DNA of 6,886 nucleotides, from the NCBI GenBank assembly GCA_002418885.1, contig DIEZ01000067.1:3461-10346 (forward strand). The letters are read 5' to 3'. Source of the stretch: Syntrophaceae bacterium UBA5761 (GTDB lineage: Bacteria > Desulfobacterota > Syntrophia > Syntrophales > UBA4778). Shown here one piece after another: positions 269 to 2,891 of the stretch (the stretch's first letter is position 1; every line of letters starts with the position of its first letter). The notes under the pieces are model-generated. The model was not told the DNA's origin and searched no databases. It saw nothing but the letters and a program-made list of their open reading frames with translations. Made by a program: the position numbers and the translations under genes.

Positions 269-286
269 GCCTGCCTGCCGCGCCCC

Positions 287-529
287 GCCCTTTTGGATCA
301 GTCGTTTCAATCGTTGACGTCCAAACCCGGTTTTCCAATCTGATTCCATCTGCAGCGATTGCTCTCGTGTCGCAGCCAGTTCATAATGCGCAATGCAAAC
401 AGGTTTGTGACGTCTTGTCCAGTCAGCCGCGGTTCCGGCTCTGTGCTCCTGCCAACGGCGTGTCAAGTTGTCTGTTTGCCCTATGTAAAGGCTGCCGTCT
501 TCGCACTCTATCGCGTAAACATAGAAAGG
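287..529 (-). CDS. GIY-YIG nuclease domain without its own start or stop
   Basis: This is a complete single-domain GIY-YIG endonuclease of about 81 residues, of the small stand-alone type. The GIY-equivalent YVY is encoded at 523-515, YIG at 487-479, and the conserved arginine in LTRRWQEH at 460 or 457. AADWTRRHKPV follows, and the metal-binding glutamate of QMESDWKTGFGR is encoded at 346-344. All expected catalytic positions appear intact. Upstream in this frame there is a TAG at 599-601 and no ATG, GTG or TTG before the domain. Downstream the frame stays open into the HsdR C-terminus. It therefore looks built to be translated as part of the host protein, yet it is currently +1 relative to hsdR. 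GIY-YIG enzymes cut DNA as homing or repair nucleases. A role in moving the surrounding palindrome is inference. Confidence 0.82.
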
Positions 530-2891
530 GCTGGGCGGCGGCGCAGGCAGGCAGGTCGAAGATGCCGCAACAGACCTCGTACCGCTCCAGCATCGCGCCT
601 ACGGCCACGTCCTGGTCGATAGCCGTTTGCCCCTTGCCGCCGCTCTCGGTGTAGTTAGCGAGAGCCCGGCGCAAGTTGTCGGCCAGGCCCAGGTAGTCCA
701 CCACCAGGCCGCCGGGCTTGTCCTTGAACACGCGGTTCACTCGCGCGATGGCCTGCATCAGCCCGTGGCCGCGCATCGGCTTGTCCACGTACATCGTGTG
801 GAGGCACGGCGCATCAAAGCCTGTCAGCCACATGTCGCGGACAATCACCACCTTGAACGGGTCTTTCGGGTCCTTGAAGCGCTTTGCCAGTTCCTCGCGG
901 CGCGGCTTGTTGCGGATGTGAGGTTGCCAATCGACCGGATCGAAGGCCGAACCCGTCATCACGATCTTGAGGATTCCTGCAAAGTCCTCCTCGTGATGCC
1001 AGTCCGGACGGATCTCCGTAATGGCCTTGTAGAGTTCGACGCAGATGCGGCGGCTCATGCAGACGATCATCGCCTTGCCGTCCATCGCCGAAAGACGCGC
1101 CTCGAAGTGCTTTACCAGGTCCTCGGCGATCAGTTTCAGCCGCTTTTCCGTGCCGACCAGGGCCTCGAGCTGCGCCCACTTGGTCTTCATCCGCTCCCTG
1201 TGCTCGGCCTCTTCGCCCTCGGTGGCCTCCTCGAATTCGGCATCGAGCTTGGGTCGTTCCGTTTCCTTGATTTCCAACTTCGCAAGTCGGCTCTCGTAAT
1301 AGATTGGGACGGTTGCTCCGTCCTTCACTGCCCGCTCGATGTCGTAGATGCTGATGTAGTCGCCGAACACGGCGCGAGTGTTCTTATCGGCCAGCTCAAT
1401 GGGCGTGCCGGTGAAACCGATAAACGAAGCATTCGGCAGCGCCTCGCGCATGTGCCGGGCGAAGCCGTCGATGAAGTCGTACTGGCTGCGATGCGCTTCG
1501 TCGGCGATCACGACTATATTACGGCGGTCCGACAGCAGCGGGTGTTGACCTGCCTGCCGCGCTGCACCCGGCGCAGGCAGGTCCTCGCTGTCGGTCGGGA
1601 AGAACTTGTGAACCGTCGTGAAAACGACTCCGCCGGAGGCGGTCGTCAAAAGCTCCCGCAGATGCGCCCGGCTCTGTGCTTGCACCGGTTGCTGGCGAAG
1701 CAATTCGTGACAGCGCGCAAACGTGCCGTAAAGCTGGTCGTCCAGGTCGTTGCGGTCAGTGATCACGACCAGCGTCGGGTTCTCCATGGCAGGATGCAGC
1801 ACGACCCGCCCGGCGTAGAACGCCATCGTCAAGCTCTTGCCCGACCCCTGAGTGTGCCACACAACACCGACACGGCGGTCACCGGGCTTGGCGTCTTTCC
1901 GGCTCTTGGCAAAATAGGTCCCTTCGCCCTCTCGCGCCTGCCAAGGGGAAGCGGAAGGCACACAGGCGCGAATCGTCTCCTGCACAGCCACATTCACGGC
2001 GTGGTATTGGTGATACTCGGCCATCTTCTTGACCAAAACACCGCCGCCCACATCTTCAAAGACGATGAAGTGCCGGATCAGGTCAAGGAACCGCCGTTTG
2101 TCGAAGACGCCTTCCAGTATTACCTGGAGTTGCGATAGCCGCGTGTCGGCCAGTTCCTCGCCTTCGATGGTCCGCCAGGGCATGAACCATTCACGGCCGG
2201 CCGTAAGCGCACCGATCCGCGCCTGCACACCGTCCGAGATCACCATCGCCTCGTTGAACGAGAACAGCGATGGTATCTGCTGCTTGTAGGTTTGAAGCTG
2301 ATTGAAGGCCGACCAGATAGTGGCATTTTCGGTGGCGGCATTTTTGAGTTCCATCACCGCAATTGGGAGGCCGTTGATGAACAGCACCACGTCAGGACGC
2401 CTGCCTGCCGCGCCGCTTCGCTTTGCGGCGCAGGCAGGGCGTTCGTGCTGGCCTGCCTGCGCGTTGCACGCAGACAGGTTTTCGACCACCGTGAGCTGAT
2501 TGACCGCCAGGAATTCGTTGTTCTCCGGCTCATCGTAATCGAACACGCGGACCAGATCGCCGCCGATGGACCCATCGGCCCGTTGGTACTCGACCGGCAC
2601 GCCCTCGACCAGATACTTATGAAGGGCGTGGTTGTTCGCCACAAGCGACGGTGTGTCCGGCCGTGTCAGCTTGCGGAAGGCTTCTTCCAAGGCATCCGCC
2701 GGCACCTGCGGATTGAGCCGCGCCAGCGCCTGGCGCAGCCGATATTCCAGCACGACCTGGCCGTAGTTATCACGCTCGGAGGCGAGTTCACCCGGGGCAA
2801 TATCCAGCCCCGCCAGAATTAGATAGCCCATGCTCTCCAGCCACGCCAGGGCGGCCTGCTCGATGACGGATTCGGTAAAGGTCATTTGCAT
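423..2891 (-). CDS. hsdR: Type I restriction enzyme R subunit, frameshifted and truncated by insertion
   Basis: HsdR is the DNA-translocating and cutting subunit of a Type I R-M complex. As read it has 822 residues, against about 1000 for the family. The PD-(E/D)xK nuclease has D167, E181 and K183 (RPDVVLF then ELK). The SF2 motor has HTQGSGKS at 346-353, DEAH at 464-467, GFTGTP at 492-497, DMWLTGFDAP at 686-695 and QAIARVNR at 713-720. Homology stops after GIFD (residue 779), where the GIY-YIG element enters; residues 780-822 are out-of-frame noise. Three short elements add residues 139-147, 152-164 and 438-448. The start could be M1 or M3: M3 aligns with the start of the second hsdR remnant, while M1 lies 4 nt after TAAGG, which overlaps the stop of the preceding gene. 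It is probably translationally coupled to the DUF4276 gene. Unless frame is restored, the C-terminal assembly region is lost and the protein may be inactive. Confidence 0.9.
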   Translation of the reverse strand: MQMTFTESVIEQAALAWLESMGYLILAGLDIAPGELASERDNYGQVVLEYRLRQALARLNPQVPADALEEAFRKLTRPDTPSLVANNHALHKYLVEGVPVEYQRADGSIGGDLVRVFDYDEPENNEFLAVNQLTVVENLSACNAQAGQHERPACAAKRSGAAGRRPDVVLFINGLPIAVMELKNAATENATIWSAFNQLQTYKQQIPSLFSFNEAMVISDGVQARIGALTAGREWFMPWRTIEGEELADTRLSQLQVILEGVFDKRRFLDLIRHFIVFEDVGGGVLVKKMAEYHQYHAVNVAVQETIRACVPSASPWQAREGEGTYFAKSRKDAKPGDRRVGVVWHTQGSGKSLTMAFYAGRVVLHPAMENPTLVVITDRNDLDDQLYGTFARCHELLRQQPVQAQSRAHLRELLTTASGGVVFTTVHKFFPTDSEDLPAPGAARQAGQHPLLSDRRNIVVIADEAHRSQYDFIDGFARHMREALPNASFIGFTGTPIELADKNTRAVFGDYISIYDIERAVKDGATVPIYYESRLAKLEIKETERPKLDAEFEEATEGEEAEHRERMKTKWAQLEALVGTEKRLKLIAEDLVKHFEARLSAMDGKAMIVCMSRRICVELYKAITEIRPDWHHEEDFAGILKIVMTGSAFDPVDWQPHIRNKPRREELAKRFKDPKDPFKVVIVRDMWLTGFDAPCLHTMYVDKPMRGHGLMQAIARVNRVFKDKPGGLVVDYLGLADNLRRALANYTESGGKGQTAIDQDVAVGAMLERYEVCCGIFDLPACAAAQPFLCLRDRVRRRQPLHRANRQLDTPLAGAQSRNRG
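544..555 (-). repeat. CCTG x3 tetranucleotide tract that sets the hsdR frame
   Basis: Three perfect CCTG units (cagg on the plus strand) form one arm of the 286-bp element. The corresponding arms of the short elements have two units. One unit fewer would give an insertion of 282 bp (94 codons) and a reading of GIFDLPAPPPSPFYVY, placing GIY-YIG and the HsdR C-terminus in frame. The tract is short for slipped-strand phase variation, so it may simply be a mutation or an assembly error. Confidence 0.7.
1549..1581 (-). repeat. 33-bp palindromic element inside hsdR (type B)
   Basis: The arms are cctgcctgc (1549-1557) and gcaggcagg (1573-1581), with cgcg and cggc asymmetric inner bases and a short loop. 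It is read in the hsdR frame as LPAPGAARQAG (residues 438-448), just before HPLLSDRRN and the DEAH motif. Deletion gives SEDQHPLLSDRRN, close to the KGDRHPLLSDRRN I recall for this family. Its length is eleven codons, with no stop in any of six frames. Confidence 0.85.
2400..2438 (-). repeat. 39-bp palindromic element inside hsdR (type B)
   Basis: The left arm is cctgcctgc (2400-2408), a 3-nt bulge, then gccgc; the right arm is gcggcgcaggcagg (2425-2438), with an eight-base loop. It is read as PACAAKRSGAAGR (residues 152-164), directly before the nuclease RPDVVLF motif. Its reading phase differs from the other copies, but its length is exactly thirteen codons. Deletion restores HERRPDVVLF. 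No stop occurs in any frame. Confidence 0.85.
2452..2478 (-). repeat. 27-bp palindromic element inside hsdR (type A, copy 2)
   Basis: The arms cctgcctgcgcgt (2452-2464) and acgcagacagg (2468-2478) pair with one mismatch and a two-base bulge. It is read as LSACNAQAG (residues 139-147). It lies 13 bp from the 39-bp copy. Removing both gives VVENQHERRPDVVLF, the uninterrupted family-like sequence. It matches the copy at 6-32 at 24 of 27 positions. Confidence 0.85.

What the first reader, a model, noticed from the sequence alone, without database searches (positions are those of the whole stretch)
270..555. GIY-YIG nuclease nested in the loop of an in-frame palindromic element inside hsdR
Seen directly: a complete GIY-YIG domain (287-529) sits between arms whose ends match those of the 33- and 39-bp palindromes elsewhere in the same gene. 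The peptide framing also matches: LPAP...GARQAG here, LPAPGAARQAG in the 33-bp copy. Exact removal restores HsdR (GIFD-GFDW). The domain has no start or stop codon, so it depends on the host gene's translation. Known for comparison: REP sequences with their RAYT transposases, and Rickettsia/Wolbachia palindromic elements that insert in-frame in genes; neither, to my knowledge, carries a GIY-YIG domain. Inference: this is the mobilising form of a palindrome family, with the nuclease as mobility factor, a possible new kind of in-frame selfish element.
Basis: partly seen in the sequence, partly recalled or inferred. Interest (0 to 1): 0.93.

Follow-up and report, generated by a model that had tools for sequence, protein, structure and literature searches.

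The report
Palindrome-ended nuclease element inside genes
Short DNA elements, with inverted-repeat ends around a domain of the GIY-YIG family of DNA-cutting enzymes, sit in frame inside many unrelated bacterial proteins, most often restriction and other defence enzymes, and they likely move by means of that domain; the copy found here lies in a restriction gene but is out of frame with the part before it.

Summary
Window 270-551 (minus strand) is a 282-bp element: inverted arms CCTGCCTGCGCCG...CGGCAGGCAGG around a GIY-YIG domain. This copy is out of frame with upstream hsdR; one arm holds an extra CCTG. A second copy, in hsdM of the same operon, is in frame. Relatives, mostly 94-95 codons, lie inside HsdM, HsdS, HsdR, other DNA methylases, helicases, RNase R, LeuRS, AlaRS, CCA-transferase, MsrB, RibD, TatD and NuoG, in about a dozen phyla. 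Empty relatives show exact insertion without target duplication. Arm codons stay fixed while interior codons follow host GC. An arms-first search of 392 genomes gave 4 hits, all with GIY-YIG, two broken by a stop. Embedded copies split from 26 stand-alone GIY-YIG genes. Solo palindromes keep frame-sized lengths, 48 of 52. A 2006 paper noted one GIY-YIG insertion in HsdR (PMC1564403), without palindromes. Mobility by the nuclease is inferred, not shown.

The parts
270..551 (-). GIY-YIG palindromic element (282 nt) in hsdR, including both arms
   Evidence: same arms and length as relatives
538..551 (-). 5' arm on the coding strand: CCTGCCTGCGCCGC
   Evidence: sequence
270..283 (-). 3' arm on the coding strand: GCGCGGCAGGCAGG
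   Evidence: sequence
552..555 (-). extra CCTG unit next to the 5' arm; the GIY-YIG frame is shifted relative to upstream hsdR
317..526 (-). GIY-YIG catalytic domain (PF01541); nearest solved folds are UPF0213-type
   Evidence: (residues 19-88 of P0001); fold
423..2891 (-). host gene hsdR, upstream part; its frame runs into a stop inside the element
2..269 (-). continuation of hsdR after the element (GFDWSPW...), in the frame of the GIY-YIG domain
1549..1581 (-). solo 33-nt palindrome, in frame in hsdR (LPAPGAARQAG)
2400..2438 (-). solo 39-nt palindrome in hsdR, read in another phase
2452..2478 (-). 27-nt palindrome of the second kind (CCTGTCTGCGTGC..), in frame in hsdR (LSACNAQAG)
6..32 (-). 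27-nt degenerate palindrome of the second kind near the 3' end of hsdR
   Evidence: (D4)

Best explanation
Window 270-551 is one copy of a family of about 282-bp DNA elements, found in frame inside many unrelated bacterial proteins, whose conserved inverted-repeat ends enclose a GIY-YIG nuclease domain that is predicted to drive the element's movement. Shown here: the element inserts exactly, with no target duplication and no loss of host sequence; its length keeps the host frame in most copies; nearly all copies have no ATG ahead of the domain, so it is read as an internal domain of the host protein; the ends are held constant as DNA, independent of host base composition, while the GIY-YIG protein is conserved although synonymous sites are saturated; and the same ends occur as solo 27-39-nt palindromes, mostly multiples of three. 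Inferred mechanism: the nuclease domain recognises the two ends paired with each other as a stem, cuts there and at short targets (often GA^Y), and host repair or recombination copies the element into the target. Spread between genomes at one host site likely goes by homing-like gene conversion and by transfer of the host defence operon. Solos are likely internal-deletion or non-autonomous derivatives. Restriction and defence genes would act as vehicles. The window copy is likely decaying.
For: Many hosts: 84 proteins (by its Pfam column 56 HsdM, 13 HsdS, 3 HsdR, 12 others of which 8 housekeeping) and 30, 22 of them new. Named genomes: 29 of 56 loci cover the element nearly end to end, 28 of these 29 without a stop inside. 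Exactness: RNase R, TatD and LeuRS align to solved structures on both sides of the insert with a net excess of 94 residues each. HsdM: 111 of 118 close relatives show an uninterrupted site such as EDDGEPFEEKM, 7 not matched by the script; 23 of 30 loci at DNA level, 7 not located. Reciprocal hsdR sites: site A loaded in the window and empty in L012, site B the reverse. DNA-level ends: mean codon homozygosity 0.83 in 8 arm codons, 0.33 in 31 interior codons, 23 elements. Arms-first: 4 of 392 genomes (2 already known), 4 of 4 with GIY-YIG, reversed control 0. Tree: 30 armed and 7 other embedded rows against 26 stand-alone rows, SH-aLRT 97. Element more alike than its flanks: P0002-P0004 98% against 82% and 58%. 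Solos: 48 of 52 multiples of three, p=7e-19. The whole element strand folds with its ends paired (z -3.0).
Against: No movement was observed. Copy number is low, one or two loaded copies per genome, and the two copies in the window's genome differ (56% identity). Host and element identities in HsdM correlate (r 0.60) and the HsdM tree needs only 5 changes, so much of the same-site spread may be transfer together with hsdM. No solo was found at the loaded HsdM site. Solo flanks show no GA preference. Single arms do not form hairpins of their own, save one of four tried. Two of the 4 arms-first hits carry an internal stop. L034 has lost the conserved Glu. Many genomes with solos have no loaded copy. 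Most data are metagenome assemblies.
Confidence: 0.66

Rival explanations
1. Homing only: the nuclease cuts empty alleles of a given host site and the element is copied in by homologous repair, like a splicing-free homing endonuclease; the arms have no role in recognition.
For: Same site in HsdM across many taxa with empty close relatives; element more alike than its flanks; low copy number; GIY-YIG homing nucleases are known (PMC3943268, search listing only).
Against: The ends are nearly invariant across sites, hosts and base composition, and identical ends exist as solos elsewhere, which homing does not require. The element occurs in many unrelated genes.
Confidence: 0.3
2. The element is moved in trans by another enzyme such as a Y1 (RAYT-like) transposase, and the GIY-YIG domain is a passenger.
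For: 8 of 10 genomes tested have a Y1_Tnp match; one gene in L139 holds both the GIY-YIG element and a Y1_Tnp match between palindromes of its own; REP/RAYT pairs are known (PMC3733652, passages).
Against: Single-contig genome G101 holds the loaded element and 9 solos of 26 nt or more but no Y1_Tnp match; G406 has none either. The Y1 unit in L139 has different ends. The GIY-YIG protein is conserved while synonymous sites are saturated.
Confidence: 0.12
3. The GIY-YIG domain is a useful added nuclease of restriction or defence enzymes, inserted by chance and kept by host selection.
For: Most hosts are restriction or defence genes; host and element identities correlate in HsdM.
Against: It also sits in RNase R, LeuRS, AlaRS, CCA-transferase, MsrB, RibD, TatD and NuoG. 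Most of the closest HsdM relatives lack it. DNA-level constraint on the ends is not explained.
Confidence: 0.08
4. The arms are chance GC-rich flanks of an ordinary stand-alone GIY-YIG gene.
For: Stand-alone GIY-YIG genes are common.
Against: Score and coverage are bimodal, the embedded copies split from stand-alone ones, and an arms-first search recovers only GIY-YIG loops, 4 of 4.
Confidence: 0.01

Closest known systems
GIY-YIG insertion in HsdR MCA0838 of Methylococcus capsulatus (Dunin-Horkawicz et al. 2006, PMC1564403; passages read)
   Same: GIY-YIG domain inserted at about position 800 of HsdR, absent from an 80% identical homologue; the authors called it very recently inserted and asked whether other GIY-YIG members are molecular parasites. 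It may be site A of the window (inference; not compared).
   Different: Called a unique insertion there; 'palindrom' and 'inverted repeat' do not occur in the main text. The passages seen tell of no family, ends, solos or further insertion hosts of this kind.
Rickettsia palindromic elements, RPEs (Ogata et al. 2000, 2002; cited in PMC10969869 and PMC3733652, passages read; PMC186582 not held)
   Same: Palindromic elements inserted in frame in unrelated genes.
   Different: About 150 bp and described in the passages with a conserved peptide; no enzyme is named there. Here there is a nuclease-bearing form in about a dozen phyla.
REP sequences and RAYT (Y1) transposases, REPtrons (PMC3733652 passages; PMC2817692, PMC3116915 search listings)
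   Same: Short palindromes as solos plus a form with an enzyme flanked by them.
   Different: Enzyme is a Y1 transposase, repeats mostly intergenic, GTAG/CGTC tags. Here GIY-YIG, in frame, read as part of the host protein.
GIY-YIG homing endonucleases such as I-TevI and I-BmoI (recalled; PMC3161791 search listing)
   Same: GIY-YIG fold; presence/absence at fixed sites.
   Different: No intron or second domain seen in the element; conserved inverted ends; many sites.
Inteins (recalled)
   Same: In-frame insertion in host proteins, often with a nuclease.
   Different: No splicing domain found; as far as the sequence tells the insert stays in the protein.
UPF0213-type GIY-YIG proteins (PDB 1zg2, 1ywl; YhbQ as a member is recalled)
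   Same: Nearest solved folds.
   Different: Stand-alone proteins (94 and 96 residues); the stand-alone genes compared here split from the embedded form.

Membership tests
GIY-YIG nuclease superfamily | GIY-YIG domain with its Tyr, Arg and Glu positions | tested here: met
   PF01541 over cut-off; Y12, Y22, R32 invariant and E69 at 90% or more of 28; which positions are catalytic is recalled
REP/RAYT (REPtron) | Y1 transposase (PF01797) between the palindromes | tested here: not met
   only PF01541 found in the element; Y1_Tnp absent from G101, which has element and solos
REP/RAYT (REPtron) | GTAG or CGTC tag at one end of the palindrome | tested here: not met
   no shared tag in the flanks listed; read by eye, no count made
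Protein-coding palindromes (RPE type) | palindrome inserted in frame inside unrelated genes | tested here: met
Protein-coding palindromes (RPE type) | no enzyme encoded (recalled; the passages of PMC10969869 speak of a conserved peptide and name no enzyme) | tested here: not met
   GIY-YIG domain in the loaded form
Homing endonuclease element | exact presence/absence at a conserved site | tested here: met
Homing endonuclease element | cuts the empty allele | not testable with these tools
   needs an enzyme assay
Group I intron | self-splicing intron around the nuclease | not tested
   Rfam was not searched; the element is about 282 nt and its open frame fills it end to end, which leaves little room for an intron
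Intein | HINT splicing domain | tested here: not met
   only PF01541 in the insert
IS200/IS605 | a hairpin of its own near each end (recalled; PMC6006769 search listing) | tested here: not met
   of four single ends folded one reaches z -1.9 and the others are at chance; the two ends pair with each other instead
IS200/IS605 | no target duplication | tested here: met
IS200/IS605 | TnpA (Y1) | tested here: not met

The most novel reading that the evidence does not exclude
A new class of mobile element that lives as a translated domain inside host proteins: a GIY-YIG nuclease, made only as part of the host protein, recognises the paired ends of its own DNA and moves both the loaded element and solo in-frame palindromes, using restriction and other defence operons as vehicles across the bacterial tree.
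Probability: 0.55. Interest if true: 0.95.

Novelty: categorically new. Interest (0 to 1): 0.91.

Why it matters
Autonomous elements usually bring their own gene start or their own splicing (recalled). This one appears to need neither: it is found as an extra domain in enzymes such as RNase R, LeuRS and AlaRS and in defence enzymes. It would give in-frame coding palindromes a candidate enzyme, answer a question that a 2006 study left open about the GIY-YIG insertion in HsdR, and offer a small scarless system for placing domains inside proteins. It also warns annotators that many HsdM and HsdS 'fusions' with GIY-YIG are likely element insertions.

Tried and rejected
Chance arms: rejected. Viral origin: a protein scan of viral contigs confirmed no relative (54 stretches matched a pattern) and the arms pattern gave 0. 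Shared target consensus for loaded and solo forms: not found. Loaded copies have GA before the element in 21 of 32 rows, with the window copy read before its extra unit; one search tallied 31 rows and 20 GA because I left out L064 there. Solos show no such preference (by eye). Solo at a loaded site as insertion target: not seen, looked for at the HsdM site only. dN/dS by pairs: 251 of 253 pairs are too saturated, so it is not used. NCBIfam gave only sub-cut-off matches to a group I intron endonuclease model for 4 of 4 proteins. Fold search gave one match at E below 0.001. The HsdM structure search ends before the insert and says nothing on exactness. The 20-nt palindrome CCTGCCTGCCGGCAGGCAGG is a different, mostly intergenic class; it is inside the counts, not. 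Rows dropped: 9 of 56 loci were not inspected. The embedded copies with other or no arms (L027, L029, L031, L036, L039, L040, L070) stand apart in the tree as 'hostother', and L053 was not used in it. One search uses only palindromes of 26 nt or more that one search printed (G400 has 63, not all printed) and leaves out two nested ones.
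Full report
Observation. The window is a 6886-base piece, bounded by two NN gaps, of a 19,336-base contig (L003). On the minus strand hsdR runs from 2891 and stops at 423. Between 551 and 270 lies a GIY-YIG domain (53 bits) with arms CCTGCCTGCGCCG and CGGCAGGCAGG. The GIY-YIG frame reads LPAPPPSPFYVYAIEC...GGARQAGGFDW, one step off the upstream hsdR frame, which reads GIFD LPACAAAQPFLC. 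What differs from relatives is a third CCTG unit in the arm. Whether the extra unit is real or an assembly slip cannot be told here.

Same operon. The genome shows two PF01541 matches, both above the cut-off (five candidates scored). The other is in hsdM, in frame: AEVEDD LPAPRPGCFFVYAIRC...GRARQAG GEPFEEK, with the same arms and the same 282 nt. The exact solo pattern CCTGCCTGCN{1,30}GCAGGCAGG occurs three times in the 2-Mb assembly, all in this contig, in hsdR (two) and hsdM (one); a wider pattern finds seven, five here and two in contig C87.

A family. A search for the hsdM element alone, among proteins of 0.55 to 1.75 times HsdM's length, gave 84 proteins of 179 candidates. By the Pfam column 56 are HsdM, 13 HsdS, 3 HsdR, one DUF1156, two SNF2 helicases, one unassigned, and 8 housekeeping: RNase R (2), HGD-D dehydratase (2), NuoG, CCA-transferase, LeuRS, TatD. 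LPAP or LPTP occurs in 80 of the 84 and RQAG or the like in 77. Of 86 sequences (these and P0001, P0002) a script cut out the element in 82; 75 cut-outs are 95 residues long, 4 are 94. A second search gave 30 proteins of 176 candidates, 22 new. In named genomes 56 loci encode a relative; 29 cover it nearly end to end, in records titled Nitrospira, Bacteroidia and Flavobacteriaceae, Planctomycetota, Verrucomicrobia, Acidobacteria, Gammaproteobacteria and Lysobacterales, Deltaproteobacteria, Moraniibacteriota, Doudnabacteria and Parcubacteria, Bipolaricaulota and Acetothermia, Spirochaetales, Neomarinimicrobiota and WOR-3; counting these as about a dozen phyla is my grouping. L016/L017 and L037/L038 look alike in pairs at the site and may be binning duplicates. 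L035 is titled without the word MAG. Of the 29, 28 have no stop inside. Pfam confirms hosts AlaRS, RibD, MsrB, UvrD/PD-DExK helicase, SNF2 helicases, DUF1156, an N6/N4 methylase and HsdR; L034 has no other family. It confirms the housekeeping hosts that were sent (ten proteins, two of them with no other family).

Exact insertion. RNase R P0070 aligns to 8cdu at 60-267 and 360-782, LeuRS P0079 to 1h3n at 2-311 and 410-707, TatD P0083 to 2gzx at 1-68 and 176-359; set against the partner's numbering each has a net excess of 94 residues. For HsdM, 118 of the 120 best listed relatives of the host part were new and carry no PF01541; 111 show an uninterrupted site such as EDDGEPFEEKM and 7 were not matched by the script. 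Only 7999 candidates were scored and 120 listed. At DNA level 23 of 30 HsdM loci show the empty site and none of the 23 a solo there; 7, including the window genome's own loaded gene, were not located by a pattern that can only find short sites. hsdR gives a reciprocal pair: site A (YEVCCGIF^) is loaded in the window and empty in L012 (YEVCCGIFHGFEW), with L025 loaded too; site B (VEYQRA^) is empty in the window (VEYQRADGSIGG) and loaded in L012. There is no target duplication.

Anatomy. Of 32 loaded copies tabulated, 23 measure 282 nt from CCTGCC to GGCAGG. The other nine are L022 and L028 (309), L030 (285), L034, L067 and L032 (279, the last with an irregular end), L041 (286, a stop inside), L066 (decayed end) and L019 (broken end). 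The 5' arm carries an extra GC not mirrored in the 3' arm, so the ends are asymmetric; CCTGCGCC stands at the 5' end in 29 of 32. Within the first 12 codons 31 of 32 have no ATG; 11 of 32 have an ATG, GTG or TTG codon there, some of them Val of the domain itself. Codon homozygosity is 0.83 in eight arm codons and 0.33 in 31 interior codons; interior GC3 runs from 0.20 to 0.69 broadly with host GC while the arms stay put. Synonymous sites are saturated in 251 of 253 pairs. Y12, Y22, G24, R32 and H36 are invariant and E69 nearly so in 28 copies, L034 being an exception. Single ends fold no better than chance in three of four cases, whereas the whole strand folds with its ends paired (z -3.0, 1 of 200 shuffles as good). 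The model of the domain (pLDDT 80.7, 28 sequences, last seven residues below 50) is nearest to 1zg2 and 1ywl. In the model of HsdM with the insert a helix resumes at 591-622 after the domain (pLDDT 82.4).

Not ordinary GIY-YIG genes. In 395 genomes of the phylum, 101 have a match; nine hits in eight genomes score 97 bits or more and the rest 77 or less. Of the nine, seven have recognisable arms (one decayed, one with a stop inside) and two, L069 and L070, do not; L069 is a small open frame with an ATG of its own. The best of the rest, L071 (77 bits), is a further hsdM copy with arms and shifts of frame. In the tree the 30 armed and 7 other embedded rows stand apart from 26 stand-alone rows (SH-aLRT 97; 82 columns, unrooted, and the stand-alone set was drawn by similarity to the armed one). 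Arms-first, without any protein query, 4 of 392 genomes of the Planctomycetota match, 2 of them already known, and all 4 loops encode GIY-YIG, two with an internal stop. In 35 genomes chosen because they hold a match, strong matches number one, with two in G400 and in G419 (G157 and G413 appear to be one genome).

Solos. The exact solo pattern occurs in 51 of 395 genomes, the reversed control in none. In four genomes 48 of 52 palindromes of 26 nt or more are multiples of three. In fetched loci 31 of 36 that lie in a long open frame on either strand are multiples of three, against 4 of 17 that do not. In single-contig G101 six solos and the loaded copy lie within 10 kb, four of the solos inside the same DUF1156 gene. 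In L139 one palindrome sits inside the loop of another, which suggests that palindromes insert. Solos fold as hairpins (z -2.1 to -4.2).

Mobility. In HsdM, element identity exceeds that of the 38 residues after it in 259 of 265 pairs with element identity of 0.80 or more (mean 0.85 against 0.60; all 1081 pairs 0.73 against 0.53), so the excess is partly general conservation. The clearest pair, P0002-P0004, has 98% against 82% and 58%. Against this, host and element identities correlate (r 0.60, 45 loaded proteins, 0 of 999 permutations) and the host tree of 156 needs only 5 changes; the empty set was drawn near one host. I read this as mostly long residence and joint transfer with the host gene, with occasional jumps.

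Known work. PMC1564403 (passages read) describes one HsdR insertion and asks whether such members are parasites. PMC3733652 and PMC10969869 (passages read) describe REPs and in-frame RPEs; GIY-YIG does not occur in their main text. Ten paper searches listed no title or abstract start that describes a GIY-YIG element with palindromic ends; the library lacks most subscription papers and all bioRxiv preprints.

Noticed in passing
L139 minus strand 3708-7181 (genome of L012): One DUF1156 gene (1158 aa open frame) holds a GIY-YIG element and also a Y1_Tnp (RAYT-like) match (26.9 bits; 22.4, just under the cut-off of 23) between palindromes GGTGGCACAGGC..GCCTGTGCCACC: an in-frame REP-type unit beside the GIY-YIG one.
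   Followed up: partly
L139 around 415-460 and 3735-3797: Nested palindromes: one of the CCTGTCTGCGTGC kind sits in the loop of one of the CCTGYCTGCCGCG kind.
   Followed up: partly
window 2452-2478, 6-32; L012 413; many in G400: A second palindrome family, CCTGTCTGCGTGC NNN GCACAGGCAGG, read as LSAC..AQAG or CLRA..HRQA, also mostly a multiple of three.
   Followed up: partly
L027, L029, L031: GIY-YIG domains inside what looks like HsdR, without the usual arms, next to a CCTGTCTGCGTG-type palindrome; they fall among the embedded copies.
   Followed up: partly
L019 3' arm: The 3' arm looks four bases shorter than in relatives, with loss of the host frame: like the window copy, a change by one tetranucleotide.
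   Followed up: no
G158, G140, G215, G237 and others: A perfect 20-nt palindrome CCTGCCTGCCGGCAGGCAGG in several to many copies, mostly intergenic where fetched.
   Followed up: no
host lists: Strong concentration of the element in restriction and defence genes; several housekeeping hosts (AlaRS, RibD, TatD) are in records named as Patescibacteria groups.
   Followed up: partly
L003 14740-14820: What looks like a tRNA gene next to the hsd operon, as at the edge of a genomic island (by eye).
   Followed up: no
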